From positions 7,235,399 through 7,299,398 of the forward strand of contig JAHREC010000013.1 of the NCBI GenBank assembly GCA_020081605.1: DNA of 64,000 bases, read 5' to 3'. This DNA is from Albifimbria verrucaria (taxonomy: Eukaryota; Ascomycota; Sordariomycetes; Hypocreales; Stachybotryaceae). The notes under the pieces were generated by a model. The model was not told the origin of the DNA, made no database searches, and saw only the letters and a program-made list of their open reading frames with translations. Of the stretch, positions 11,521 through 64,000 are shown piece by piece (position 1 is the stretch's first letter; every line of letters starts with the position of its first letter). Position numbers and translations under genes: made by a program.

Positions 11521-13204
11521 TTAAGCTGGGATTGCTGTTTCGAATTTACTCTTTCTCCTGATTGCTCTTCCCCACTTGAAAAAGATCCATGGCAGCGGTA
11601 GCAGAGCCAAAGCAATGAATGCGAGTAGGGTACTCGCCCAATCTATACCGAGCGTCTGATACACTAAAAGCAAAAGGTCAGACATCGCAACAGCATAGAA
11701 AAATACAGCTAGGAGACTTACTCTGGACTGTGAATAGTGGGAAGGCGCCGGCAAGAATGTAGCGTGCAAGGCTGTTAGCACTCGATGCACTCGCGACATT
11801 CTGGGGAGTATAAGTGTCGACCAGGTACTGGATTACAGAGATGAAGAGACAAATATTGCCCCAGGCAAATGGCATGATGGCTACCGCAGTACTGGCCCAG
11901 CTAACATCGCTCCTTGCTGACCAGGCAAACCAAAAAGAGAGATTGGAAGCCCAAAGCTGCCGATTATGGCGGGATATAGTCTATATTCTGGCGGGGTTTG
12001 GTGAGGCGGGTGCTTCTTCGTCTGCGGTAGGTACAGGACTACTGTGCAGATAACGACGGTGACGGCGCCAAGCAGGCAGCCAACAATGATTGCGACAAAC
12101 ACAAGACCCGCCTGCTCCATCGTAAAACCATATACTGTAGTAAAGGTATAAGGCACCGCGGCGAAAAAGCTAAACAGAGTAGCGAACTCGCAAGCTGTGT
12201 ATAGGCACAACAGTCCAATAATGGGTTCTGTAAACAGCATGCGAATAGGTCGAAGCAATGCTATTGTCAAGAACATGGCCACGACTTTTCTTGTTGGGGA
12301 GACGGGGCAACAGGTTGGCCCATTTTCTTAGCATAACGTCGCTTCAGCGTTGGGTGATGAGTTTCGCTACCCACGAGTGCAGTCAAGAACGCAAAGATGG
12401 CGAAGAAGATGAGGGTCCACTGAGTCCAACGCCACCCCTTTCGAACCGAAACAAATGCGCCAATGACAGGCCTAGTGCATTGTTAGTTCAGGAGAAGCCA
12501 TACAGTATAGAGACATTCACAATTGAAATACTCACCCAAACCCAGGCCCAAGGAAAGGCATCAAGATAAATATAGTCGACGGCAGGCCTCTCTCAAATGG
12601 TAAATAAATGTCGGTCATTGTACCTGCTCCTATCGCCAGACTCGGTGCAAATGAGAAGCCTGCCATGAATCGTAGAAAGCAGAGCGCACCAAAGTTATGG
12701 GTTAAAGCGGCGCCAAGCGTGAAGAGCGCACCCAAAGGTACGGATCCGAGGTACACTGGGTACCTGCCAACTGTTTCTGATAAAGGACCGCCTACAACAG
12801 GTCCAAGTCCTAGAGCAAACACGTAGAGAGACAAGGGAAGTATCGACTGTGTGATGGTGACATCGAATTCTGTTTGAAACTGGTCACGGGCAGAGCTTGG
12901 TAGAGAAGTTCCGATAGATCTACACGACGTCGGCGCGTTCAGAATGGGTTCTCAAGATATCTGGCCATATTTTAACATACGCTGTGAAGGCAATAGCTGC
13001 TGACATGATGACTTGCAGCATCTTCTTCCGTGGTGTCCAGTTATACGGATTCTCCAGGGCTTCATCCCAGCTCAAGCTCGCATCGGTGTCTTCTCCAGTC
13101 TTCTGCTGATCATTGTATTCTTTCGATGAGGCTTCGGGGCGAGCGTTATCCGCCTTCTGAAGTGCGAATTGCTGTCCTTCAACATCGTCGTTGAGTTGTG
13201 CCAT
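11521..13204 (-). CDS. MFS transporter, DHA1 (polyamine/drug) type, frameshifted as given
   Basis: Twelve-helix plasma-membrane exporter of the fungal TPO/FLU-like drug:H+ antiporter group. It starts MAQLNDDVEG with a hydrophilic N-terminal tail ending in the ENPYNW motif typical of this group. An intron of about 60 nt joins AFTA to SIGTSLP. The DHA1 motif LGPVVGGPLSETVGRYPVY and RFMAGFSFAPSLAIGAG follow. A second intron (12475-12534 region) leads to PVIGAFVSVRKGWRWTQW, then RMLFTEPIIG, RLYPAIIGSFGLPI, NVASASSANSLARY and, after a third intron, the last helix LLAFIALALLPLPWIFFKW. Two frame breaks are present: a TTTT run (+ strand 12286-12289) and an AAAAA run (11932-11936). Restoring one base at each gives a full-length family member. 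It is divergent from the bZIP gene about 600 bp away, a common layout for a regulator and its exporter. Confidence 0.9.
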
Positions 13205-22284: not shown

Positions 22285-24201
22285 ATGCTCGGCCTGACTG
22301 TAAAAGTCGCGGCACTGGTCTTGGGCAAGTAGCTATACTCAACAGCAATGTCCATTGCTAACAGCGACTACAGCATTTTGCCACACTAGCCATGCCCTAT
22401 CAGCCAATATTCTTGCTGATACAAATCGAGATGGCATAGTTGATGTAGCAGGTAGCTCTGATGTCACCGGAAAGAAAAATTGGACGCCCGAGCGCGGAGC
22501 CCTTTTCCTGCCAAACGTTGTCGATACTGATCGTCGTTGCTCGTCACTTCCGGCAACAGAGCAAACCATGCATCTTTGTCATGATGCCGCGGATAACATT
22601 TTAAGACAGCCCAAATACCTTGCTCCTCTTCGCACCTTGCCTGCCAACGATATAGGCAACAACGCATTCGGTATCATAAATGTTACGACCGCCGCTGCTA
22701 TAGATCGCGTACGGATCTTTTTCAAAGAAGATACTACCTGGACCTATGTTGAGGAAGACCGTCGTTTCACGGCGGCACAGCTCAAAGCTGGCTTGATACT
22801 TGGTATTGATGGTCGTGATGTTCGCAGGCCCAACGTCTGGGACGGTAAAGCTATAGTAGAGTTTTCAATCACTGATGGTTCTGCGGTGTCAACCGACTCG
22901 GTTGAGCTCCGCGTGGCACCATACCTAACGCACCACCCTGTCCAACTAGCCCAACAAGTGTTTGGATCAGCACCCGGCCCTGACTCGCTGGCAAAGTTCA
23001 ATGAGGAGCTTACAAAACAAAGTAAAGTAGCCGGGATCAGCAAGTCACCAATCTTTCTGACCGGGCGCGATATTTGGACTCAAGATACTTTTGAGCCGGG
23101 GTACGCAAGCATTCCTGGACCTGATGGTCCTATCGTTATTAGAATTATGCTTTCAGCTTATGCACGACGTGGCGATACTCTATCGTTATTTCAAACGGTG
23201 AGGGATGACAAGGTTGGAGTGTTAAACTTCCCACAAAACTGGGAATGGCCTGCGGATCATGGCAGTGGAACCTGGGATTCGACTGGTAACTTAGAAACGA
23301 TCCCGCCTTACACACACAATGGCAAGACTTACCCTGCTGGCCGTATTATCATCGGTGAGGGTGAGCAACGCCCGTCTATTCTGCCATTCTTGCAGCTTCA
23401 AGAAGTTCAAGAACCAATTGTACTGGATACATCCTGGCTTAGCGTTGGTCATGTTGATGAGTTTATCCAGTTTCTCCCAGCCAACAATACACGGGGTTGG
23501 GTGATTATGGCAGATGATCCACTTGCTGGCTTAGCCATTCTCAAGAAGGCGGCCGCCGATGGTTATGGCGGTGTTCAAGCTCTTAGCCGGCCAGTATTCA
23601 GCTATGACCCACTGGAGAACGGATGGAAGCCCGCTTGCACCCCAAAGTCCACTATCAACTACGAGCTCAGCCGGCCGAACCTCGAGGCAACCAGCAAACT
23701 GGCCGCAGAGCGTATAGAATACAACCTAAACATCATCAAGCGGGAAACTGGCATCACAGATGCTGAGATTTTCCGGGTGCCGGGAGTTGTGTTTGCTGGG
23801 GACAAGTGGACATGCGCCAACAGCCCAGCTAGCAAAGTCGCGTCTGCCAAAGTCAGTCAATCTTCAGTAATCGACGAAGACCAAGAGCCTTTCGATATTG
23901 TCGAGGCAGCCGGCGGCAGCAATTCTTCCACCGCCGTCAATCGGCGTATCGGGTGCATGCACACTACCCTGCCGCGATCAACGGCGTTATTCTCAGCGAC
24001 TCTTACTACTTAGCACCAAAGCAGTGGGGTCCGATTATTAATAACATTGATATTCTGACTGAGGCTGTGATCGCTGCTTATGCTAAAGTTAATTTCACAG
24101 TAGGGTTCATTGATACCTGGTTTACTCACCATCTTGGCGGCGGGGAAGTTCACTGCGGTTCTAATGTGTGGAGGAACCTGATTCTAAATGGTGGTAAATA
24201 A
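22285..24201 (+). CDS. Secreted protein-arginine deiminase (PAD) family protein, one frame break
   Basis: Peptidyl-arginine deiminase: converts protein arginine to citrulline, calcium-dependent in animals. The N-terminus appears to be a secretion signal; the best model joins MLGLT by a 46-nt intron to a hydrophobic stretch ending HALSA, before ANILADTNRDGIVDV. The catalytic domain keeps every key element known from human PAD4. IWTQDTFEPGY carries the first Asp, VGHVDEFIQF carries the His and second Asp, and GGEVHCGSNVW near the C-terminus carries the nucleophilic Cys. The reading frame breaks at a GGG run (23951-23953); the last 80 residues, including the Cys, are in the next frame (VHAHYPAAINGVILSDSYYL). 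One added base restores a full-length enzyme. The exact 5' exon is uncertain. PADs are patchily distributed in fungi. Confidence 0.9.
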
Positions 24202-30869: not shown

Positions 30870-31450
30870 CTTCGAGGGCTGCCCCTAACTCTTGTGAGAT
30901 GAAGCAAGCTTCGTCCGCGAGTGTGAGCACTGGAGTGTTGGGAAGCCAGGCCACCATCCTCCGCATGGGTTGCTCCGTTGGCAAGATCACTTCCTGGTAC
31001 CAATATTGATACCATTTTAAGTCAAAACTTACTTCTCGTCTGAAGTTGGCAGTTTTTATAGTGTTCGAATTGCTGCCTGCTTCCGCTTTCTTCCAAAGAA
31101 AAGACCATTATCCTCACGAGGCTGAGGCTGATGGTGGCAGTGCTGGCTTTCACATCTGGTAGGCTGGGACTCAATTGAGCATGCAGGCGAGGAAACGCTG
31201 GCACGTGACGCGAAATGTTGCTCCCATACTAAGTATGTTGGGCTCAATCTCGAGTGGCGATAAGAATCTACGACGCTGGGATCGTCTAAAAATCCACCAG
31301 TTAGTCTGTCGCGATGGATCTACTTGGATAAGCCCCTACATCTGTCAATGCACAGCGGCATTCAATGACTTTGAAGCATTTGAGACACATCGTAAAATGG
31401 AGAGATTAAAGTCAGGACGACTATTAAAGAGCCGGGTGGCTGAAACTAGA
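30870..31450. other. Intergenic, edge of AT block
   Basis: Upstream region of the unknown gene. A 92-codon plus-strand ORF (31175-31453) shows no family signature and I do not call it. Confidence 0.4.
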
Positions 31451-34400
31451 TAGGGAAGAATAAGAATATTATTATTAGTAGAATAAAACTATATTATAAG
31501 TATAGAGTTCAGGTTAGACTTAAGATAAGATATAAATATATAATATATTTATAATAATAAAAAGTAAGAGAGAAAGAGTATAAAAAGAGATATAAGATAA
31601 TTATTTATTCTAGGAATATAAATAAAATAAATAATAATATTTTTATTTTTTAATTATTTATTTTATATAGCTTCTAAAGTTTATAAAATATTAATATTAT
31701 ATTTATATAAATAAAGATTATAAATTTATATATAATAATGAAAAAGTATTTTATATTATAAAATAAATATAAAATAAATAAATAAGATTTATTTTAAAAT
31801 AAAATAATATATATTTTATTATTATTTAAAAAGATATATTTTTTAAAAAATATAATTAAAATATAATTTAATAATTATATATTATTAATAATTAATAATC
31901 TTTTAATTAATAATTAAAAAAACTTCTATTTATATATTAATATATTATTTTATAAAATAATTATTTATTTTTTTATTCTAAGAATAATATATTCTATTAT
32001 TTCTCTAAGGAATAATATTTTAATTATTTATTTTTTCTTTTATTAATAGATTTCTTTAATATATATATTAATACTTTATTAATTTTTATTATATTATTAT
32101 ATTAATTATATTAATTATATTATATAATATTTCTTTATTATTATTTATTAATTTAATATTATATATAAATTCTTTTTATATTTTTATTTTATTATTTTAT
32201 AAAATATAATTATTAAATCTTTTATTATATATAAAGAATTTCTTTTTATAAAATACTCTATAATATAAAATTTTATATTAATTATAATTTAATAAATAAT
32301 AAAATATATAATTCTTAATTATTTTATAAATATTTAAATTAATTTATTTTAATATATTTTAAATATTATATTAATATAAATTATAATATTTTTAAGTTTA
32401 AATATAATATATTAATTATTATATATATTTTAATTTATTTTTTTATATTTTAATTATATTTATTAATTTTTATATTTATTTATATAATAAATAAATATTA
32501 AAACCCTTTAATAGTCTTTAATTATTTATTTAAAAATATTATAGCTTAATCTTATTTTAATTTTATTTTTTAATAATTACTTTTAGGTTTATAAATATTT
32601 AAAGTTATAATATATAATTATATAATATTATTCTTAAGCTATAGCTTTATTTATATAATATATTTAATAAAAAATAACTTTAAATTTTAGATTTTATTAT
32701 ATAAAGATAGATTAAAGTTCTTTTTAAATAATATTTAATTAAATTATTAACTCTAATTTACTTAACTCTATATATAAATATAACTTTTTTATATAAATAT
32801 TTTTATTTTTAAATCTAATAATATTAAAGATTAATTATATATTAATAAATAAAACTATATATTTTAAATATTTTACTCTCTCTTATAAAATATTATTAAA
32901 ATATAAAAATATTAAATATTTATTATTAATATAAAATTCTTAAATATTATAAGCTATATATCTTAAACTTTTAATATAATAATTAAAATTTAATATTTTA
33001 TAAGTTTTAAAGAAATAATTTTTTTATTTATAATAATATTAATTTTATAATAATTAAAATATATAAAATTTTAAGTTTATTTAATAATAAAATTAATATA
33101 AATAATATAATATATAATATTAAAATAATATTTTTATATTTTTAATTATTAAATAATTAAAATTTATAATTAATATAATTTAATAATAATTTAAATATAA
33201 AAATAATTAAATTATTTTTTAAAAACTTATTTAATTAAAATATAAATATAAATATATAATTATAAATAAATATATAATTAATACTTAAAAATATAATATT
33301 TATTAAATTATTTAAAGAAAAAATTAATAATAAGAATTTATTTAAATATTAAAATTAAAACTCTATTTATTAATAAAATATTTATTATTTTATAGTTTTA
33401 TTATTTTAATTAAATAATAATTTAAATTAAGCTTAAAGAAAATATTTTTATTTTAAATATAATCTTTTAATTTATAAAAAAATATTAATAATATATTAAT
33501 ATATATTAAAATTTAAAATAATTAATTTATAAAAATAAATATTAAAATATATAAATATATTAATCTATTAAAACTTAAATATAATTTCTTATATTTAAGA
33601 GTTTAATTAATATTTTATAAACTTTATTTATAAAATAATATTTTAAAATATTTATTTAATTAATTTAAGCTTTATAATTATTAAATTAAAATATAAAAAT
33701 TAATATTTTTTAAATTATTTAATAATTTAATATTAAATATATAATTAAAGATAGAATTATTCCTATTATTAATTTATTAATTTTTATTTAATTTATTATT
33801 TAGAAATAATAAAGATTTAATAAAAGTAAATATATTAAAATAAGCGAATTTTAAAAAGAGATATATTAATAATTATTTAATTATACTATATAATTTTATT
33901 TATAAATTATATATCTCTAGCCTCTCTTTAATATCTAAAAGATTAAAATTAAAAGCTTTTTTATTATATTATTTTTATAATTAAGATTTAATAGCCTTAA
34001 TTAAATTATTTTTTATATTTATTATTTAAATTAATATATTTATATTAATAATAAATTTATTAATTATATTTTAATTATATTTAACTCTCTTAAATATATT
34101 ATTAATTAGTTTAATTAATATTTATTTAAGTTATATTAAAATTAAATAAAAATTAAAACTTAAAAAGTAAAATTACTATAATAAGAATTAAAATAATAAG
34201 ATTACTTTAAATAATAATTATAATAGTTTATTATTAATTTAAATATTATTTTTATTATTTAAGATTAAACTAAGGGTTTAAATTAAATATAAAATATTCT
34301 AAAAATATAATATTATAAATAAAGAAGGTTAAATATATAAAATAAAAAGAGATTTTAATAAAAAGTATATAAAATTATTTTATATATTTAAAAGAATTCT

Positions 34401-35150
34401 CTTTAATTAATTTATATAATAAAAATATACTATTTTATTTTCTATTAAAGAATAGAAATAACTAGCTCTTAGAGAGAACCTTAAATATAATTTAATTAAA
34501 AAAAAAAAAAATATAATAAAGTTATTATCTCTTTTTAAGCCTAGCTATTTCTTTAATAATATTTAATAATTAAATTAAAAGTAAATATATAAATATAAAT
34601 AATTAATCTTTAAACTTTTAATATTTATTTTTCTATTTATTATATATTTTATATAATTATATATTATTATAATAATAATATAAATAATCTTATTTACTTA
34701 TTATATTTTTAATAATATAACTATATTATTTAATTATAAATCAGTTTTAATATAATATTTATTCCTTAAATTAATCACTCCTTAAAGCAAAACTACTTTT
34801 AATTAATACTATTTAATAATATTCTATTTCTCCTAACTTTTTAATTTATTATTATCTTTTAATCTCTATTAAATAAAGATTCTTATAAATAAATACTTAG
34901 TATATAGGTAATTTATTTTATTATTAATTATAGTTTAATTCTTAGGAGTAAGTAATATATTATAGTATAAATATTTATTATTTATCTTTAGGGAAGCCTA
35001 GGCTATACCTTTAATAAGGTTTAGATTACCTACCCTAGCAATAAACTGCCTATTTTTCTTCTTTTAGCTATAGGTATTATTATCTAATATTTCTCTAGAA
35101 TCTATAAGATCTTTCTTTCTTAAGCTAGTTATACAGATAGTATAACAGGG
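31450..35150. repeat. Large AT-rich block (RIP-like), about 3.7 kb
   Basis: Extremely AT-rich (long stretches with only one G or C per line), no ORFs, no recognisable element ends. C or G survives mainly in short CTT/AAG contexts. Presumably one or more transposons mutated beyond recognition. Composition recovers gradually between 34.8 and 35.2 kb, and the adjacent GNAT gene starts without its 5' end. Confidence 0.88.
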
Positions 35151-35234
35151 TATATTAAGGGACTATAACGATCGATAGTGTAGATACAACCAAATAGATA
35201 AGAAAAATAACCTTTAAACTGTCCATTCTTATTA

Positions 35235-35844
35235 TTATAGCCTGAGGATTGCTGGCGATTTTGAGACTGCGGTCGAGAAGGATACGGGAAGACTTGTAGG
35301 GACAACCCTGTGGAATATCAACACATCGAATCCTTTTGCAGATGGAGATCACGATCCTCCAGCCACTTGGTTCCCTGATGACGGCTCTCGCCAGTATGTC
35401 GATCAAGTGCTTGCGCAGATAAGTGCGCCTAGAGTCCAATACTGCCCACGACCTTATGTTTGTGAGTTGTTGCATGCCACCTTAAGAAGTGGAGTGAAAG
35501 GGAGTGGGGAAGCAACGAAGCCGTCACTAACTGCGTTAGTTATGTTCATTATTAGTGTATATCCTTCCTATCGACGCAGAGGCATAGCGCAAATGTTCAT
35601 GGACTGGGGATTAGCACAGCAGATCAGATAGGCATCGAATTATTCTTGGATGCCACGCCAATTGGAAAACCGCTGTATGAAAAGAATGGTTCCTCCTGAT
35701 CAAAGAAAACGCGATTTTGCCAAAGACGGATACACCAGACGAAGCTTGGAAGGAAATTCAAGCAAAGGTTGGCCCTTTAGCTTTTGGCCCATGTGGCGAC
35801 CTTCTGGAGGATATGTCGAGGGCAAGACGGTGAGGCCGTGGTAG
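35235..35844 (+). pseudogene. GNAT-family N-acetyltransferase, 5'-truncated and frameshifted
   Basis: Acetyl-CoA-dependent N-acetyltransferase of the fungal GNAT type. It begins inside the fold (RIAGDFETAVEKDTGRLVG, the beta-strand pair before the core). It continues through FADGDHDPPATWFPDDGSR and, after an intron (GTGAGT at 35461 to ...GTTAG), reaches ISVYPSYRRRGIAQMFMDWG. There RRRGIA is the acetyl-CoA pyrophosphate loop (R/Q-x-x-G-x-A/G). GIELFLDATPIGKPLYEKNG follows in another frame, and the last segment WRPSGGYVEGKTVRPW in a third. At least three 1-nt frame breaks (near 35625, 35690 and a TTTT run near 35781) and the missing N-terminus at the AT block edge make this a decayed gene, whatever the read quality. 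Confidence 0.82.
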
Positions 35845-36216: not shown

Positions 36217-36516
36217 CTACATCGCTACAGGGAATACGTCACTAACTTTGACCTCCACATCCCCAATAGCAACAGGAAACACATCGCTGGTTTTACTATT
36301 ACCGTCGGCAACGGCGACGGGGAAGACATCACTAGCCCCTAAGTCCCCACTCCCGATGGCGACTGGGAACACATCACTGGCTTTGATATCTTTACCGTCT
36401 AAGACTCGTAAGCAACAAGACCAGATTCCTGAACCATTTCGCAACTCACCTTGGAGGGTGGGTAGACAAAGACCCAGAGACGCCAACAAAGTCAGACTGA
36501 ACACTTGGGAAAGCAT
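36217..36516 (-). CDS. Secreted RiPP-type repeat precursor peptide (82 aa, four SDVFPVA repeats)
   Basis: Two exons: 36450-36516 encodes a 22-residue signal peptide (MLSQVFSLTLLASLGLCLPT...). A 51-nt intron (36399-36449, GTGAGT...TTAG) follows, and exon 2 (36217-36398) encodes four back-to-back 15-residue units that end exactly at the stop codon. Each unit is seven or eight variable residues plus the fixed core SDVFPVA followed by I, V, I or M. The codons of the core differ among copies at nearly every third position, yet the amino acids are identical. This shows selection on the peptide rather than recent DNA duplication. This is the architecture of dikaritin (ustiloxin/asperipin/phomopsin-type) and Kex2-processed repeat precursors. 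Unusually, no Lys-Arg or other dibasic site lies between units; single Lys precedes three cores by one residue. A UstYa-like gene is divergent 1 kb away. Product structure unknown. Confidence 0.8.
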   Translation of the reverse strand: MLSQVFSLTLLASLGLCLPTLQGELRNGSGIWSCCLRVLDGKDIKASDVFPVAIGSGDLGASDVFPVAVADGNSKTSDVFPVAIGDVEVKVSDVFPVAM

Positions 36517-37542
36517 CTTTGTCTTCGATGTGCCAATATAGAGATAATAGGCTGTTGATTGACAAATTTTTGTCTTGGTATGTAGGTTTCTTGCCCGCTG
36601 TAGAACACACCGATTCCAGCTAAGCTGGGGCACTCGGTCTTTATGTTGGTATTGGATGATTCGATATCTGTGCCAAAACTGATGGCATTGGTACGAGATT
36701 TCCCTCAGGTTGGTGGCATAGGTATGTCTCCTGATGTTGTAGGAATGGCGCCCCACCCACCCAACGACTTTGGGCGCTTGACCACCAACTGCCTGTTGGT
36801 GAATTATGTTGGAGGTGGGTATGATTCACGTTCACATCGTGACTTCTATTTGACAAGGGTAGCCTTGTCCTTGTATGAGGCCGCAGAACTGCGCCACCGC
36901 TTCCTGCATCCCTCTCCTGAGTTCGTCATGGTCTTCATACACACCACGTCGCAGTCATGCGTGTAACTACAGAGCCTTCTGCCGACTTTGCGGGCGTTGC
37001 ATCCTTTCTTGGTTCATCATGCAGCAATGAAGACGCGGGACTGGACGCAGTTCAACACGCTTGTTTGTCTGGTTCGGTTGCTCTATACTACCTAACATCC
37101 AAGCCTCCTGTACTTTGATTGGGTAGGAAGGATCTCCTGAGCTTCTAGTATCACACTGATATCTACAGGGCTACCAGTCAAGACTAGGTTGATGTGGCTC
37201 CACGTCAATCTGCAGCGTTCCATAGGACATTTTGTGTAGTATTACAATGTCATCCTCTTCCTGGATTGGGAAAATCCTTGGGGAGAAATGACGAGCCAAG
37301 AAACAAAAGTTCCCACCGCCTGCGTCGTGCATGCATGAATAATCGTGAGCCGTCTCAGTTGTGGTGGCTCATTTAGAATTACATATCACATCTGCTGTGC
37401 GAGGCTTATTTAGAACAACGCATCTTTCTCAACATGGAACCATCCCCTAGACTATTAATCACCACGTTCTATATTTTTAGTATCTACTCCTCTTCTTAGT
37501 TTCTGCCGCTTTTCCCCTTGTTCTTCGCGAATCTGTATCAAA
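36517..37542. promoter_or_regulatory. Divergent promoter region of the RiPP precursor and UstYa-like genes
   Basis: A 1,026-bp gap lies between two start codons pointing apart. A plus-strand ORF here (36643-36966) has no signal or motif and is not called. Shared control is inferred from layout; no specific binding site identified. Confidence 0.4.
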
Positions 37543-38596
37543 ATGGATGAACATGTAGTCAATGATACCGAACGTTTTTAAGTGAGGATTCTGGGGTTTG
37601 TTGCGCATCCTGTAAGGGTTGCAAAGGTGATACGGCACTCCGCAAACCCTCATGGGTCCGCACAAATGGCTTGTTTCTGGTCGTTATTGTCCTTCTGGCT
37701 CTAAACGCGATGCTGCTGGCCACGAAGTTTATCTCTTCAATCAATTTCAATGGCAATCACAAGGGAGAATGCGATGAGAACAGCTCATCACACAAAGGAC
37801 ATGGACAATTGAGTAGGTATTCATCTCAACTCATGAAACGCTTAATTGATGACTTCATTTAGTATTTCCTGACGGTGTGCTTCAGTATGACAAGAGGCCA
37901 CGGTACTTGCCGTATGTATTTCCGTATGTACTTGCAAGAGACTCAGGACTCCTTCCTGTATAATGGCCATATGAAGAGTTGTGAATGCTTACGACTGTAT
38001 CCCAGCTGGAAGCAGGAGCCCTCTGATGAGCTCGACCGCATATGGGGCGATCTATTATGGGGTAAGTGTTTGGCACTAGGTCCAGTCCAGGAGAGTTTTT
38101 GAATAACCATGCAGCCCCAAATATTGAAATTACTCCTCAAGAACTCAAACATCTCGACCTGAACTCAACAAACAGGATTAAGGTGAACGGTGGTAGCCAC
38201 TATTGGGCCCATCTCGGGATTTATCACAGCCTGCATTGCCTGGACAATCTTCGTCGTATCTTGCACAGTGATTACTATGAGAAGGAGATTTCTGGTTCTA
38301 GATTCCTTAAAGCATTCAAATTCGGTCATACCGGTATGCCCTCAAGCCACATCAATCAATTCTTTGCATTTTCTAACCACCAAGTTAAAGATCACTGCAT
38401 CGACATGATTCGACAATCTCTTATGTGCCATCCAGACCTTGGTGTATATACGGCCGAATGGAGTGATGATTCGCACACTATCCCTAACTTGAAGATTAAA
38501 GTTGAAGCGCAAACTAGCTGTGTGAACTGGGAGAACTTGGACAATTGGGCTCGTGGGCGAGCTCTCCGCCCCGGTTGGGAGAAGGCTGCACTTTGA
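37543..38596 (+). CDS. UstYa-like (DUF3328) oxidase/cyclase, type II membrane protein
   Basis: UstYa-family proteins catalyse oxidative cyclisation or other oxidation of RiPP core peptides in the secretory pathway. Start MDEHVVNDTER; a Cys-rich cytosolic tail; one membrane anchor GLFLVVIVLLALNAMLLATK. Three introns (37813-37862; 37912-38005; 38062-38114) join in frame to LIFPDGVLQYDKRPRYLP, WKQEPSDELDRIWGDLLW, then PNIEITPQELKHL. The diagnostic region reads GIYHSLHCLDNLRRIL, a perfect first HxxHC motif. It continues with DHCIDMIRQSLMCHPDLG, in which the second motif is altered (V rather than H three residues before the His). About 270 residues, normal for the family. One frame break in a TTTTT run (37575-37579) separates the first 12 codons from the rest. 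It lies 1 kb from the divergent repeat precursor. Confidence 0.88.
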
Positions 38597-39683
38597 CAGT
38601 GTTAGAAATTCACAGACTGACAGGAGAACACCTATATATGATGACGTCTTTGTACCTAATTCAGCATAACCCGATGATTTGAGTAAGGCTGAGGAGGCCG
38701 GGAGCGGTTGGCACGAATAACAGTCTGCTAAATTGTAGGACCTGTTACTGAATATCATGTGGAATGTTGATTGGAATATTGTGGTGACAATTTATTATCG
38801 ATACTTCTGATCAGGCAAACAAACGTGACCAAAAATGCAATTCTAATAGTTCCTGGGAGTTTCCATGCGCACTAGCGAATTGCAAAGACAAACCAGCATT
38901 TCGAGATCGATAAGAGGAACATGGGAATGATTCCATAGCACCAAGAAATAAAAGTGAAAATGGAAATAAAAATAATGTTATTCGTGGTTGCGTGTCCGAT
39001 GTGATCAGAGTGGCCTATTTGATGTGAGAGACCTTAAAATATATCAAGACTAACCAGACATATTTAGTAGGACAACGAGTTTCCAGGGTACTACGGAAGA
39101 TGCGCTGCAATTGCTGCCGTAGCACAACTCACAGGGATCCGCAGAAGCAATGAGAGAAACGGACGAGACAACTTGATCCGCTTATCAGTGTAGGAGAAAC
39201 ATAGGTAACTAGATGGTGCAAACTTTCTATCAAAGTTGAAACTCTAGCAAACCACACTATGCAATTGACCATGGAAATTTATTATTCCATTTCTATGCTT
39301 ATACACTAGCTAGAAACCACGGCGTTCGTTTGAGCCACGCTATAATGAATGGAGCGTTGTGATTCTCGATACCGGCTCTGATCACAACCACAGTCGTGAT
39401 TCGTGCCTCAGCATAAGTCACCACCTTGAAGGTGTTTGATTGAGGAGCAGTTTTGGCGAACTCGCTACGCTACGCTACAAAGTGGCATACTTAGTCAATC
39501 ATCAGTTTTAACCTCTTCATCGCCTGTAGTAGCATAAGAGAACACATTATCAGCTCCGAGATTGCCTTGTGTAATGGCGACAAAGAAAGCTAAATCGCTT
39601 ATACAATAGACGTACCACCGCTCCTCGAAACTAAGATAAATGGCACTTGATCCAAGCAAGGTCAAACACGTTCTGATCTACCA
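38597..39683. other. Intergenic, no gene recognised
   Basis: About 1.1 kb between convergent 3' ends of the UstYa-like gene (+) and the cutinase (-). Only short ORFs; no second UstY gene, tyrosinase or peptidase is seen here. Confidence 0.45.
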
Positions 39684-40534
39684 TCAAGGTCGGCTACAGC
39701 TGGTCTTGTTCAAAGCGTCTGCAATGAATTTCACACTGGGATCAATCCATTCAGGGAACATATATGTCAGATGATAGTAGAAACATGGACCTTCGGTGCA
39801 GATCTACATTCATCATGTCATTAGATGGCCACAATGCCCCACAAACATTGGAAACTTACTGGGTCTCCCGCTGCGCAGTTTTGCAGCAATTTCGGTCGGA
39901 GAGCTGTTGGGAAATCTCTACCAGCCTTCAAGTATGGGTCACCAAACATAACTAAGGCCTTGATCTTAGGATAAAGCGTTTCCGGAAGTTGCTCTGTTGC
40001 TAGGTGCATAACGTAGGCACCCTGAGAGTACCCCACAAGAGCAAATTTCTGACGAGGACACAGGATACTCTGGCTTCTTAATCGCTGAACCACGTCCGCA
40101 ACACCCTTAAGCGAACTGTTGACGACATCTGAGCTGGCGGGATACTTGATGCCACGTCAGTGCAGTGGGACCCACGGCGAATCTGTACACAATCGCCTTA
40201 CTTGGACAGGATAACCCTGAACACCCTCTAACACCTTTGTGAGATTGCTTATGACTGGATCACCAACGATGACACCGAATTTGCCATCCGGTTCGAAGTT
40301 GATCTCGCTTGTCCCGCGAGCTTGGTATTATCAATGTCAGCGTGCATGAAACCGGAAGAGAATTGACATGTAGCATACCGACAAGCACCTCATAGGCCGA
40401 ACACCCTGTTGGTATATCGTCTGGATTCTGTGGAACTGCCGGCCCAATTTCATAAGGGGGTGGGGTGGACAGTCCTGCCCGGCAACTAGACTGACTGCTA
40501 AGTAGAGCAAACCGGGGACCCGTCTGCATAGCAT
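39684..40534 (-). CDS. Cutinase (CE5 family), secreted, one frame break
   Basis: Secreted serine esterase that hydrolyses cutin or related polyesters. The start at 40534 gives a signal peptide (MLCRRVPGLLYLAVSLVAG). The second, in-frame half of exon 1 (PYEIGPAVPQNPDDIPTGC) is one base out, at a GGGGG run (+ strand 40456-40460). An intron then joins YEVLV to ARGTSEINFEPDGKFGVIVG, the oxyanion-hole region. A second intron joins GVQGYPVQ to YPASSDVVNSSLKGVADVVQ. The nucleophile motif FALVGYSQGAYVMH follows. A third intron joins LQNCAAGDP to ICTEGPCFYYHLTYMFPEW, giving the catalytic Asp and His in their normal spacing. The end is NKTSCSRP. About 225 residues with four family cysteines. Apart from the single homopolymer break, it looks functional. 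Confidence 0.92.
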
Positions 40535-41160
40535 GGCTGGTGAGTTCAAGTTATCACTTATATTTGAGGAGCCTCAATTGGTAATGAACAAGAAATATCG
40601 AGCTGCGACCCTGCTGACAAGAAATGGAAAGGGTGGCATTTTATACATGCATCCTATGATGGGCGGGCTATTGTACTTGTTACCGAAAGCTGAGAGGCCA
40701 GGCCTAATTAGTCTATCTACATGACATACATGTACTGCTCAATACAAAATATGCAGACATCTTCCCATCGGGAACATCAGCCGTGCAAGTGGGCGATAGC
40801 TTCCTGCTCGTATGCAACGGATGACGCTCCCGCATATTCTCGGTTGAAGCCTAGGGTTAGCCGCAGTCAGGGGTCCAGGTGTCTGAGAATCTCATCCCCT
40901 TGGGTGTGCCAAGGCAGCATCCATGTATATGACCCATATCACCCATGTAATGATGTCAGTACATCCAGGGACTTGGAAATCCCTCACTATATAATTAGCT
41001 ATATAACTGATTATGACGAAACTTCCATAATAGATAATGCTGCTGCAGCTAGCTACCTGATTATGGAAGAAGATAACAAGGCTGTAGCGGCCACCGTGCC
41101 GGCCGATAAACTGTGACGATCAGGGTTGTCCTACACAGTGTGAAGGGTATAGGGTAGGTA
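40535..41160. other. Intergenic, edge of AT block
   Basis: Upstream of cutinase. A 131-codon plus-strand ORF (40721-41116) has no family signature, and its 3' half has low-complexity, AT-drifting codons. Not called. Confidence 0.4.
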
Positions 41161-43651
41161 AGATCGAGTAGTTATCCTTTGATAAATAAACAGGGCTTAC
41201 TTTTAACTTAAAGTAATATTATATAATTATTATTAATTAAGTGAGTTACCTTTAGAACTTAAGTTAAAGGTAGCTTAATAACTATATATTATTAATAGCT
41301 AATAGTCTTTTAATTAATAACTAGGAAAAGATTCTTATTTATATATTAATATTTATATTATAGAATAATTATTTATTTTATTATTCTAATAATAATAACT
41401 TTTATTATTATTCCTAGCTATAATAAGATAGTGTGTTTTTAATAAAAAAGAAAAAAGTATATAGGATTAAGATTAATTAGAATATATAGAATAGGTTAGG
41501 AATATATAATATAGAGACTTAGGTTTAAATAAATAAATTATATACTTTAGATTTTAATTATTTAATAAAAAGAATTCCTATAAAGAAATTAAAACTAATT
41601 AATTAAAAAAAAAAAAAATTAAATTATAATAATAAATTATATTAAAAAAAAAAAAAAGAATAAAAAAAAGATAGAATAGAATAAATAAAATAAATAAAGA
41701 ATAAAAAAGATTAAATTAAAGTTTTAATATTAAATATTTAATTATATATAATATATAAATTAAAATAAAAATATATATATATAAATAAATAAACTAGGAT
41801 TAATAAATAGTAGTTTTATTAATTATAGATTATAAATAAATTAAATAAAATAAGAATTATTTAGAATAGAATAATTATTAAAAAGAAAAAAATAATAAAA
41901 ATAAAGAAAATTAAAATAAATATATTTAAAAAAAAAAAAATTTATTTTTAATAATAATAAAAATATTTTAATAATAATATATATATTAAATATAAAAAAA
42001 TAAAATAAAATAAAATTAAATTAAAATTAAAATATATTTAAATAGTTTTATATATAATATAAAGTATTATATTATTATATATTAATAATATATAATATAT
42101 TTTATTTTTAATAATTTAAAATAAAATAAAGATTTAATTTAAAAATATTATTTATATATTAAACTATATTAATTAATAAATAAAAAACTAAAGATAATTA
42201 TTTATTTATTATTATTATATAATTTACTAAGGATTAATAAGCTAAAATATAAAAAACTAAATAAAAAATAATTATATTAAAGAATTAAAAGTTTTATTAT
42301 ATATATTAAATATATATATATTAATAAATATAATAAAATAATTTATTAATTAAAATTAATAAAAATTATTTTTTTAAATAATATAATAAAAAAGCCTTAG
42401 AATATAGAATAATTAAAAGCCTAATTATAAATATATTATATAACTTAAATAAATTATATAAAAGTTTATATAGAAGTATATATAGATTAAACTAAAAATA
42501 AAGAGTAGATTATATAAAAAAATAAAAAAATAAATTATATTAAATATTTTTAAGCTTAAAATAAATAATAAATAAATTAATTAATAATTAATATTTAAGA
42601 ATATTATATACTAAGAGAAAATAATATTATAAATAATTAAATATATATAATTTAATTATATAAGCTATAGTATTATTAAAGGTTAATATTAATAAAATAT
42701 ACTAAGGATAAAATAAGGTAAATTTAAAGAGATTTAGTATTTTTATATATTATTAAATTATTAAGAACCTAGAAGATTAATTAAAAAGAAAGAAAAAATA
42801 AAAAAAAAAAAATAGTAAAAATAATAATATAAAGTAGCTAAAGTCTATTAATAAATATTATTATTATAATAATAAATTTATTTATTTATATTTTAAAATA
42901 AAGAGTTTTTATTTATAAAAATATTAATATATATATATTATAGTTAATACTTTAGCTTATTTAAAAAATAAATATTTATTATTCCTTATTAAAATAAAAG
43001 CTTATATTCTAAAAGAGATTAAAAAACTATTTAATTTTATATAAAATAAGATTAAGCTAAAGGATTTTATATTCTTAAATTTATATTATATATTTATATA
43101 TTAGTTTACTACCCTTATAGTAATAGGAAATATTAATAGGCTATTAATAATTCTTTTCTATAGAGTATTTAAACCTATATTAAAAGACTAGGGTAGTTAA
43201 TAATTCTTTTTTAATCTACTGATAATTAAAGAAAAAACTATATAAATAAATAGAATAAATATTATAGAAAATATAATAAGATAAATTATATATTAATTTC
43301 TATTAAAAGTTTTTATTTTATATTTTTTTTTATTTATTTTAATTAATTATAAATATATATATATAAAATTCTTAATAAAATTAAATAAATTAATTTATAT
43401 ATAAATTAATAATTATATTTAATAATATTATATTTTTAATAATAAAACTTAATATTATTTTATTTTTAAACTCTATAAATATTAATTATAATATTATTAT
43501 TTTATATTTATTAATTTATTATTTCTTTTATTAATATTTTTTTTTAAAAATATAATTATTAATATAAATTAAATATTTAATTCTAATTTTAATAATTTAT
43601 ATTATATATATATAAATTTAATAAAAACTATTAATTTAATTCTTTTTTAAA

Positions 43652-43682
<31 letters not shown>

Positions 43683-43795
43683 TAAACCTATAACTATTAA
43701 AAAATATAAATTATAATATATAATATAACTATTAAGTAATTACTAAGTATATTATATATATAATTTATAATTATACTCATAGATATTTTAATATA
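41160..43795. repeat. Large AT-rich block (RIP-like)
   Basis: Almost pure A+T over 2.6 kb, with poly-A runs and no ORFs. Strand bias toward A on the plus strand is visible in the first half (41.4-43.0 kb), unlike the more balanced block at 31-35 kb. Confidence 0.85.
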
Positions 43796-44995
43796 TAAAA
43801 TAATAGCTAGCTATATTACTATTACCTTATAGTACCTATTACCCTATAGCCTTATTACCCTATAGCTCTATTATATTAATACCCTATTACCCTATTACCC
43901 TATAGCCCTATTATACTATTACCCTATAGCCCTATTATACTAATACCCTATTGCTTTATTACCCTATAGCCCTATAACCCTATTATATTATTATACTATT
44001 ACCCTATTACCCTATAGCCCTATTGCCCTATAGCCCTATAGCCCTGTGGCCTTATTATATTAATACCCTATTACCCTATTACCCTATAGCTTTATTACGC
44101 TATTACCCTATAGCCCTATTATACTATTGCCCTATTACTCTATAGCCCTATTGCCTTATTACCCTATTATATTATTACCCTATTACTCTACTACCCTATA
44201 GCTTTATATAATAACTAGCTATATTACTATTGCTTTATAGTGCTTATTACCCTCTTACTCTATTATACTATTACCCTATTACTCTCCTACCCTATAGCTC
44301 TATATAATAGCTAGCTATATTACTATTACCTCACGGTGCCTATAGCTCTATTATATTATTACCTTATTACTCTACTACCCTATAGCTCTATATAATAGCT
44401 AGTAATATTACTATTACCTTATAGTATTTATTACCCTATTATATTATTATACTATTACTCTATTACTCTACTACTCTATAACTCTATATAATAGCTAGTA
44501 ATATTATTATTACCTTATAGTACCTATTACCCTATTATACTATTATACTATTATCCTATTACTCTATTATTCTATAGCTCTATATAATAGCTAGCTATAT
44601 TACTATTACCTTATAGTGCCTATAGCCCTATTATCCTATTACCCTATTATACTATTACTCTATAGCCCTATAGCTCTATTATTCTATTACTCTATAGCCT
44701 TATAGCCTTATTATACTATTACCCTATTACTCTACTACTCTATAGCTTTATATAATAGCTAACTATATTACTATTACCTTATAATACCTATAGCTCTATT
44801 ATATTATTATACTATTACTTTACTACCCTATAGCTTTATATAATAGCTAATAATATTATTATTACCTTATAATATCTATTACCCTATTATTTTATTATAC
44901 TATTACCCTATTATTATACTACCTTATAGCTTTATATAATAGCTATATATATTTATTATTATTTTATTACTTTATTATATTATTATTGTAGAGGG
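43796..44995. repeat. Degenerate satellite of 8-bp TTACCCTA / TAGCCCTA units with a higher-order repeat
   Basis: About 1.2 kb built from imperfect 8-mers of the type ATTACCCT and ATAGCCCT. A longer module containing TATAATAGCTAG followed by TATTACTATTACC recurs about nine times. Copies sit near 43.80, 44.21, 44.30, 44.39, 44.48, 44.59, 44.75, 44.84 and 44.94 kb, with irregular spacing of about 85-160 bp. The units resemble, but are not, telomeric CCCTAA repeats. Confidence 0.85.
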
Positions 44996-45022
44996 GTATT
45001 CCGTGCTTGGGTATAGGGTTAA

Positions 45023-45175: not shown

Positions 45176-45204
45176 CGTAGGGGCGGGCCGTAATGCATCG
45201 GGTG

Positions 45205-62842: not shown

Positions 62843-63203
62843 TTGAGGATCTTTGGCCCTAGGGTCTGCAGAAGAAGTTTGGTTAAGGGTACAAAGAACA
62901 GGGTTGAAGGCCGAGGTGGGCCAGGGTTACTAGCTAAGGTTCTTGTTAGACTGAAAAGACGAAGAGTTTAAGAGAAGGTGGGTTAAGTTCTCTAATCACT
63001 GAGGAAGGAGGAGTTGTAGGAAGTTGTAGGAAGTTTTTCACAAGCTACTTTTTGCTGTCTGTTGTCTGTTGTCTGTTGTCTGCGGTTGAGTCTCCTAGTG
63101 TCACGCTGCCCTAGCTTGTCTAAGCGCTTCTCCCAGTTGCTTGTTGGTGCCTGTTTGTTCTCGCTATCTAGTCGCTGTTTTCTACTCTTTCTTGTCTATC
63201 TTC

Positions 63204-63323
63204 TGTTCTCTGCTCTGTTCTCTGCTCTGTTCTCTGCTCTGTTCTCTGCTCTGTTCTCTGCTCTGTTCTCTGCTCTGTTCTCTGCTCTGTTCTCTGCTCT
63301 GTTCTCTGCTCTGTTCTCTGCTC
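63204..63323. repeat. 12-bp minisatellite, ten perfect units
   Basis: TGTTCTCTGCTC is repeated exactly ten times. Because 12 is a multiple of three, every frame reads through it and gives spurious FSAL-type or SLLC-type tetrapeptide ORFs. The identity of the copies indicates recent expansion. Confidence 0.95.
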
Positions 63324-63847
63324 TTTGTTCTTTACCTCCCGCTTTAGCCTGTTAACCTTTTCCCACCAGTCCTTTCTGTTCTAGATCGGTTGTCTGTTGT
63401 CGTCGCCTGCAACCTGCTTAGCTTTCTTTTCCGTTTGCTCTTTCTAAGTTGCTACTGTCCGCCAGGTGTGGTTGGCCATCTGCCGTCTGCTTTTTGCTTC
63501 AGGGTCTTTACTAAGCACTCTCGGCCTCTGCTGGTTACTACTTTGCTAGTCACTGGTTTCCACTTGTTTGAAGCCTAGAACCTTAAGGCTACCTGATCTT
63601 TCCTACCTGGGTGGTCTCCACTACGCGCTTACAAGTAACCGACTGTTTGCGTCTTTGCTTTTCGGTCTCCACTCGTTACCCTCTGGCGGTCCCTTGTTGC
63701 TGGTCGTTTAAGAAGGCCGAAGCCTACGACTTCTTACAAGGGCGAGAAGCAAACAACAGACAGTTAAAGGCGGCTACTAAACGGCAAAAAGCGGAAAAGT
63801 AGCGTGAAGAGAGTAGAAAGGGTGAAACTGCAGGCCTAATCTTGGCC
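63324..63847. other. Subtelomeric spacer, no gene recognised
   Basis: Pyrimidine-rich on the plus strand, with many TGTC/CTTG words. A short ORF ending in a Lys-rich helix (63611-63802) has no identifiable family. Confidence 0.4.
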
Positions 63848-63890
63848 TTAACCCTACGCGTAACCCTACCCGTAGCCTTAGCCCTAACCC
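63848..63890 (-). repeat. Degenerate CCCTAA-type tract next to the telomere
   Basis: Imperfect units (ACCCTACGCGTAACCCTACC, then AGCCCTAACCC) in inverse orientation immediately before the terminal TTAGGG array. Confidence 0.8.
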
Positions 63891-63898
63891 AACGGAAA

Positions 63899-64000
63899 TT
63901 AGGGTTAGGGTTAGGGTTAGGGTTAGGGTTAGGGTTAGGAGTTAGGGTTAGGAGTTAGGGTTAGGGTTAGGGTTAGGGTTAGGGTTAGGGTTAGGGTTAG
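63899..64000 (+). repeat. Telomere, (TTAGGG)n with two TTAGGAG variants
   Basis: About 17 TTAGGG units run to the right edge, interrupted twice by one inserted base pair giving GTTAGGAGTTAGGG near 63937-63957. This is the G-rich strand running 5' to 3' outward, as expected for a right chromosome end. Confidence 0.97.

What the first reader, a model, noticed from the sequence alone, without database searches (positions are those of the whole stretch)
36217..38596. Minimal fungal RiPP locus: four-repeat secreted precursor divergent from a UstYa-like oxidase
Seen: an 82-residue protein made only of a signal peptide plus four exact 15-residue units ending at the stop codon, each with the core SDVFPVA. 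One kb away is a membrane-anchored DUF3328 protein with an HxxHC motif. Known: dikaritin-type RiPPs (ustiloxins, asperipin-2a, phomopsins) use secreted repeat precursors and UstYa-family oxidases that crosslink core side chains. Inference: this locus makes a modified peptide from a Phe/Pro-containing core. I know of no described product with this core. No tyrosinase, second UstY gene or peptidase lies next to it, so the pathway is either very small or completed from elsewhere.
Basis: partly seen in the sequence, partly recalled or inferred. Interest (0 to 1): 0.92.

Follow-up and report, generated by a model that had tools for sequence, protein, structure and literature searches.

The report
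Fungal repeat-peptide gene beside UstYa oxidase
Near a chromosome end of an unnamed fungus sits a gene for a small secreted-looking protein with four copies of one short peptide, facing a gene for an oxidase of the kind that modifies such peptides; unlike known cases it lacks the cutting sites that normally release the copies, and other gene pairs in the same genome share this trait.

Summary
The repeat gene is real. Minus strand 36516-36217: exon 1 is a signal-like peptide, then a 51-nt phase-1 intron, then four 15-residue units. Only the 7-residue core SDVFPVA is identical; summed over unit pairs the cores differ at 29.0 of 30.0 synonymous and 0 of 96 non-synonymous sites, while linkers drift. 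The divergent gene 1,026 bp away is a UstYa/DUF3328 oxidase (E 6.8e-42) with both HxxHC motifs once a fourth intron is read, but its start is separated from the coding frame by a frame break.

The RiPP reading is supported: all eight repeat-protein candidates found at this genome's 20 UstYa places have a UstYa match divergent from them within 2 kb. The new point: the precursor has no arginine and no dibasic Kex2 site, which published surveys require. Two other UstYa-linked precursors here lack such sites too; one, near a tyrosinase and two UstYa matches, has relatives in five named Sordariomycetes. Best reading: a Kex2-independent, dikaritin-like pair, its oxidase possibly recently damaged. 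New variant of a known kind.

The parts
36450..36516 (-). Precursor gene, exon 1: signal-like peptide (22 codons plus 1 base)
   Evidence: hydrophobic N-terminus by a simple scale; no signal-peptide predictor was available
36399..36449 (-). 51-nt phase-1 intron at the signal peptide / repeat junction (GTGAGT...TTAG)
   Evidence: inferred from splice signals and the same layout in four other UstYa-linked repeat genes; no RNA evidence. Reading through it is also open in frame
36217..36398 (-). Precursor gene, exon 2: four 15-residue units, core SDVFPVA, ending at the stop codon
36517..37542 (.). 1,026-bp intergenic region between the two divergent genes
37543..37581 (+). First ATG frame of the oxidase gene, closed by a stop after 12 codons (frame break against the coding frame that follows)
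37566..38596 (+). UstYa/DUF3328 (PF11807) coding frame: exon pieces 37566-37812, 37863-37911, 38006-38061, 38115-38333, 38391-38596; one membrane helix, HSLHC and HTDHC motifs; splice sites inferred
   Evidence: (E 6.8e-42)
39498..39677 (-). Decayed second precursor-like copy (no in-frame ATG in this open frame)

Best explanation
The locus is a two-gene RiPP-type unit. A secreted repeat precursor enters the secretory pathway, and a membrane-anchored UstYa oxidase encoded by the facing gene oxidises the conserved SDVFPVA cores (desaturation, hydroxylation or cross-linking at Phe/Val/Pro). Because there is no arginine and no dibasic site, the cores are not released by Kex2; either another protease acts in the variable 7-residue linkers or the modified repeat protein is itself the product. 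Shown: gene anatomy, repeat constraint, UstYa family membership, divergent pairing, absence of Kex2 sites, a similar layout at other UstYa loci of this genome. Inferred: splicing, secretion, that this oxidase acts on this precursor, the chemistry. The oxidase start is broken in this assembly, so the unit may be recently inactivated or mis-sequenced there.
For: Spliced 82-aa precursor of signal-like peptide plus 4 x 15. Core: 29.0 of 30.0 synonymous and 0 of 96 non-synonymous differences summed over the 6 unit pairs; the other eight positions 24.9 of 31.5 and 55.1 of 112.5, so the core is held by selection, not by recent copying. PF11807 E 6.8e-42; the one protein at E <= 1e-5 among 216 candidates is from Hypoxylon sp. 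FL1857, 47% identity, same motif spacing. For 8 of 8 repeat-protein candidates at the 20 PF11807 places a UstYa match lies divergent at 0.8-1.9 kb, and for 7 of 8 it is the nearest one (P 0.0004 if each arrangement had chance 1/4). Nearness itself is partly by construction, since nearly all DNA scanned was fetched around UstYa genes; orientation is not. Five of the eight share a phase-1 intron of 50-74 nt after residue 20-23. The UstYa partners of this precursor and of the Kex2-less C8:2931k precursor fall in one supported group (98/99, bootstrap rough). A decayed paralogous precursor lies on the other side of the oxidase gene.
Against: Frame break at the oxidase start. No protein sharing three 5-residue words with the precursor among 5.8 billion, so co-occurrence elsewhere could not be tested. 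No peptidase or tyrosinase found beside it; the only transporter-type hit in the pieces scanned is an MFS piece 24 kb away. No Tyr, Trp or His in the precursor, whereas 65.6% of repeats near DUF3328 genes hold Tyr (PMC7329392). No RNA or mass data. Kex2-less partners do not form one UstYa group: C33:334k falls outside. Unit comparison with the C8:2931k repeat found no similarity (519 of 2000 shuffles as good).
Confidence: 0.68

Rival explanations
1. The oxidase is already dead: the locus is a decaying subtelomeric remnant of a RiPP cluster whose precursor still reads intact because it is short or was lost last.
For: Frame break at the oxidase start; second precursor copy decayed; the neighbouring GNAT-like frames look broken by eye and begin at the edge of an AT-rich block; island of about 6 kb between blocks of 5-27% GC, about 27 kb from a telomere.
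Against: Apart from the start, the oxidase exons, splice signals and both HxxHC motifs read intact, and precursor cores show full constraint; RIP-type dinucleotide indices at 36-40 kb are ordinary. A single frame break can be an assembly error or a missed first exon.
Confidence: 0.3
2. The 82-aa protein is an uncleaved secreted repeat protein (effector or wall protein) with no chemical modification, placed beside the oxidase by chance.
For: No Kex2 site; a secreted protein of 15-aa repeats in Epichloe festucae (SspN) has been seen uncleaved (PMC6374014, passages); DUF3328 proteins also act outside RiPP pathways, as in cyclochlorotine clusters (PMC12048977, passages).
Against: A divergent UstYa match recurs at 8 of 8 candidates, including KR-bearing precursors of the standard kind.
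Confidence: 0.12
3. An ordinary kexin-processed dikaritin precursor whose sites are unusual single-lysine sites.
For: Three of four linkers have a Lys two residues before the core.
Against: The second linker GSGDLGA has no basic residue at all, and no unit has a dibasic pair.
Confidence: 0.08

Closest known systems
Dikaritins (ustiloxins, phomopsins, asperipin-2a) and victorin
   Same: Secreted precursor with repeated cores beside UstYa/DUF3328 oxidases; victorin is cyclised through Phe rather than Tyr (PMC9233826, passages).
   Different: No Kex2 KR sites between cores, no tyrosinase beside it, one oxidase only, a core (SDVFPVA) that I know from no described product.
Kex2-processed repeat proteins (KEPs; PMC7329392, passages)
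   Same: Signal-like peptide plus tandem repeats; 22% of KEP genes lie near DUF3328 genes.
   Different: KEPs are defined by repeats separated by Kex2 sites; this protein has none, so that survey's rule would not list it.
Uncleaved secreted repeat proteins such as Epichloe SspN (PMC6374014, passages)
   Same: 15-residue repeats, small secreted protein.
   Different: SspN of that strain has a kexin site; the term DUF3328 does not occur in that paper's main text, so a neighbouring oxidase is not reported there under that name.

Membership tests
Dikaritin (UstYa-type fungal RiPP) | DUF3328/UstYa protein with two HxxHC motifs | tested here: met
   caveat: frame break at the start
Dikaritin (UstYa-type fungal RiPP) | Precursor with N-terminal signal peptide | tested here: inconclusive
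   Hydrophobic N-terminus, 2.17 on a simple scale; no dedicated predictor at hand
Dikaritin (UstYa-type fungal RiPP) | Repeated core peptide | tested here: met
Dikaritin (UstYa-type fungal RiPP) | Cores flanked by Kex2 (KR) sites | tested here: not met
   No KR, RR, KK, RK and no Arg in 82 residues
Dikaritin (UstYa-type fungal RiPP) | Tyrosinase in the cluster (not required in every published case) | tested here: not met
   No PF00264 match in the window; nearest on the contig about 240 kb away
Dikaritin (UstYa-type fungal RiPP) | Methyltransferase, peptidase or transporter in the cluster (not required in every published case) | tested here: inconclusive
   Pfam scan of 37 window frames chosen from the ORF lists, not of every frame: no methyltransferase or peptidase over its cut-off; an MFS transporter piece at 12535-12951, 24 kb away
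Dikaritin (UstYa-type fungal RiPP) | Oxidatively modified peptide product | not testable with these tools
   Needs mass spectrometry
Kex2-processed repeat protein (KEP) | Tandem repeats separated by Kex2 sites | tested here: not met
   definition from PMC7329392 (passages)

The most novel reading that the evidence does not exclude
A second branch of UstYa RiPPs does not use Kex2 at all: small secreted repeat proteins, without basic pairs at the unit borders, are modified by a divergently encoded UstYa oxidase and either stay whole as multiply modified miniproteins or are cut by another protease. The branch would include SDVFPVA, the VYPEP family of Sordariomycetes and the SSPVPPLVDAGIM repeat, and would have been missed because genome surveys demand Kex2 sites.
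Probability: 0.4. Interest if true: 0.78.

Novelty: new variant of a known kind. Interest (0 to 1): 0.6.

Why it matters
Published searches for UstYa peptides (PMC7329392, PMC9632046, PMC12048977; passages seen) use Kex2 or kexin sites to recognise precursors. Three Kex2-less precursors beside UstYa genes in one genome, one with close relatives in five named fungi, suggest that a share of these natural products is invisible to such mining, and that DUF3328 genes without a known substrate may have overlooked ones. It also poses a direct question: how are the cores released, or are they released at all?

Tried and rejected
Rejected: that the second HxxHC motif is lost (it looks so when intron 4 is read through; searches show it with the intron removed). 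Rejected: that the SDVFPVA copies are identical merely by recent duplication (synonymous sites near saturation). Rejected: sequence kinship with the C8:2931k repeat unit (519 of 2000 shuffles as good). Inconclusive: DNA-level test of the decayed copy (score 34, 2 of 1000 shuffles as good; in the window scan a place at about 56.0-56.4 kb scores 40 against 39 at about 39.4 kb); the protein-level test is clear (58, shuffles at most 43, 0 of 2000; next best of 11,012 open frames 47), though I had first picked the frame by eye. Inconclusive: clustering of Kex2-less partners in the UstYa tree (192 of 500 shuffles as low, 55 columns). Uninformative: the first genome pattern search covered only TCN serine codons and found nothing, while the gene uses AGY; the protein search of the genome found only the gene itself and did not pick up the decayed copy. 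No solved structure matches by sequence at E <= 1. Limits of the repeat scan: 9 of 20 UstYa places were read to about 10 kb each side, besides the window; the others only to 1.5 kb beyond a match, where a locus was given (30 of 35 matches). (stricter signal cut-off) missed the window's own precursor; with a looser cut-off found it and breaks ties in favour of phase 1, but gives the same intron lengths as for the four other genes. A control far from UstYa genes was not available beyond the rest of the window, where picked up only a low-complexity frame at 45198. The one RR counted for C8:2931k lies in the out-of-frame tail after its break. One search used a one-letter slip in the typed precursor (G for D at the junction); later calls use the right one.

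Full report
Place. The window is the last 64 kb of contig C10 (7,299,398 bases) of an unnamed 48.4-Mb genome in 41 contigs and ends in TTAGGG repeats, so the locus lies about 27 kb from a telomere. The island at about 35.1-41.0 kb is flanked by blocks of 5-27% GC. The best relative of the oxidase is from Hypoxylon sp. FL1857, order Xylariales, which hints at that order; the host is otherwise unidentified.

Precursor. Minus strand 36516-36450 and 36398-36217, with a 51-nt intron, gives 82 residues: 22 signal-like residues plus DGKDIKASDVFPVAI, GSGDLGASDVFPVAV, ADGNSKTSDVFPVAI, GDVEVKVSDVFPVAM. Summed over the six pairs of units, the 7-residue core shows 29.0 of 30.0 synonymous and 0 of 96 non-synonymous differences; the other eight positions show 24.9 of 31.5 and 55.1 of 112.5 (pairs are not independent). 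The core is therefore under strong selection and the copies are old. The last unit ends one residue after SDVFPVA, which fits an eight-residue core SDVFPVA(I/V/M) (inference). There is no arginine, no KR, RR, KK or RK, and no Tyr, Trp or His. No candidate sharing three 5-residue words was found among 5.8 billion proteins, no other match in the genome, and no Pfam or NCBIfam match at E <= 1.

Oxidase. The plus-strand gene facing it matches PF11807 (UstYa) with E 6.8e-42 after splicing. Its second motif HTDHC lies across a fourth intron of 57 nt (38334-38390); the Hypoxylon relative P0001 has HSDHC at the same place. A membrane helix follows the N-terminus. The first ATG frame (37543) closes after 12 codons, while the frame that matches relatives starts at 37566. 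A missed first exon, an assembly error or a real mutation would all explain this; the data here do not decide.

Second copy. A 60-codon open frame on the minus strand at 39677-39498, beyond the oxidase, aligns with the precursor over 56 columns (score 58; 2,000 shuffles reach at most 43) and, the precursor's own frame apart, is the best of 11,012 open frames in the window and 47 fetched loci, some overlapping (next 47). It has no in-frame ATG. DNA-level support is weaker. It reads like a decayed paralogue.

The same genome as a comparison set. PF11807 gives 35 exon-level matches, which I group into 20 places (within 10 kb). Scans for a signal-like start plus tandem repeats, and for repeats alone, in the DNA held give eight candidates at eight of these places: the window; C33:333k (11-residue DVDDxIVYPEP-type units, three, no dibasic site); C8:2931k (15-residue ERSSPVPPLVDAGIM, no dibasic site in the repeat frame, one frame break); C13:503k (14-residue, KKR); C8:598k (25-residue, KR); C22:1568k (18-residue, KRE; start not seen, runs off the locus); C8:4921k (16-residue, KR; units go on in a second frame and run off the locus, so broken or spliced); C8:4441k (Tyr-rich, irregular, two KR/RR in its frame; uncertain). 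All eight have a UstYa match divergent from them at 0.8-1.9 kb, the nearest match in 7 of 8; at C13:503k the nearest is convergent. If each arrangement had chance 1/4, 7 or more of 8 has probability 0.0004. That candidates lie near UstYa genes is partly by construction, as nearly all DNA scanned was fetched around such genes. Five of eight have a phase-1 intron of 50-74 nt after residue 20-23; phase-1 introns after signal peptides are common in general (recalled), so this is supporting, not decisive. Kex2-less precursors are thus 3 of 8 candidates, KR-bearing ones 4 of 8, one unclear.

The C33 case is the clearest generalisation. Its 59-residue product has six hits among public proteins (6 of 6 candidates); five are 60-63-residue proteins of Podospora didyma, Lasiosphaeria miniovina, Echria macrotheca, Rhypophila sp. 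PSN 637 and Xylaria sp. FL0043 (four Sordariales, one Xylariales), and one is a 70-residue JGI frame. Reading the six sequences, I see no KR, RR, KK or RK in any of them. Within about 7.5 kb on C33 lie two UstYa matches (330607, 334170) and tyrosinase matches (327217-327925), enzymes that ustiloxin-type clusters also have. Whether the relatives also sit beside UstYa genes could not be tested (no genomic context for those proteins).

Oxidase tree. On 55 columns, the window oxidase, P0001, the C8:2932k partner of another Kex2-less precursor, C13:130k and C8:185k form a supported group (98/99; the bootstrap had not settled), but Kex2-less partners as a whole do not cluster more than chance (192 of 500 shuffles). 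At C13:130k a facing, non-repetitive small secreted-like protein with a 52-nt phase-1 intron can be read; at C8:185k none was found in the 2.4 kb searched.

Neighbours. Pfam scans of 37 window frames chosen from the ORF lists (not every frame) gave, apart from UstYa: GMC oxidoreductase, short-chain and zinc-type dehydrogenases, an MFS transporter piece, protein-arginine deiminase, HET, a Fringe/DUF604 protein, cutinase, and GNAT only below cut-off; no peptidase family above its cut-off.

Literature (passages seen through 'find' only). PMC7329392 defines the precursors by a signal peptide and repeats separated by Kex2 sites and reports 7,878 such proteins, 22% near DUF3328 genes, with Tyr in 65.6% of the repeats near DUF3328. 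PMC9632046 also requires kexin sites. PMC6514808 and PMC9233826 describe KR/Kex2 processing for ustiloxins, phomopsins, epichloecyclins and, as likely, victorin, and the Phe-based ring of victorin. PMC12048977 reports DUF3328 as class-defining with two HxxHC motifs as the marker, and lichen clusters without repeats. PMC10880069 lists cyclisation, chlorination, hydroxylation and transacylation by DUF3328 proteins and desaturation in phomopsins. PMC8403587 found ustiloxin-like clusters in Hypoxylaceae by precursor similarity. PMC6374014 describes a 15-residue-repeat secreted protein that stays uncleaved. In the listings of searches, and in the passages of these eight papers, I saw no report of Kex2-less UstYa precursors; the library holds open-licence papers only, and the victorin paper was not held.

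Conclusion. The wider point is a Kex2-less kind of UstYa precursor. That the oxidase acts on this precursor, and how, is inference.

Noticed in passing
L004:711-482 minus (C33:333380-333151): 59-residue Kex2-less precursor-like gene with VYPEP repeats between two UstYa matches and near tyrosinase matches; close relatives in five named Sordariomycetes.
   Followed up: partly
L045:8359-8007 minus (C8:2931359-2931007): 15-residue Kex2-less repeat gene facing a UstYa gene, with a frame break in its third unit.
   Followed up: partly
L013:426-126 minus (C13:about 129.16-128.86 kb): Non-repetitive small secreted-like gene with a 52-nt phase-1 intron facing a UstYa gene of the same group as the window's.
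   Followed up: no
window 35218-35833 plus: GNAT-like frames that look broken by eye and start at the edge of the AT-rich block; Pfam support only below cut-off (two further pieces no hit). GNAT genes occur in a lichen DUF3328 cluster type (PMC12048977, passages).
   Followed up: partly
window 39824-40156 minus: Cutinase exon (PF01083, E 2.9e-19) beside the decayed precursor copy.
   Followed up: no
window 22304-24198 plus: Protein-arginine deiminase domain (PF03068) in two frames, E 1.5e-66 and 3.7e-23.
   Followed up: no
window 31001-35000 and 41001-45000: AT-rich blocks down to 5% GC on both sides of the island.
   Followed up: no
window 63172-64000: 8-residue-period simple repeat frame and terminal TTAGGG array: the contig ends at a telomere.
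   Followed up: no
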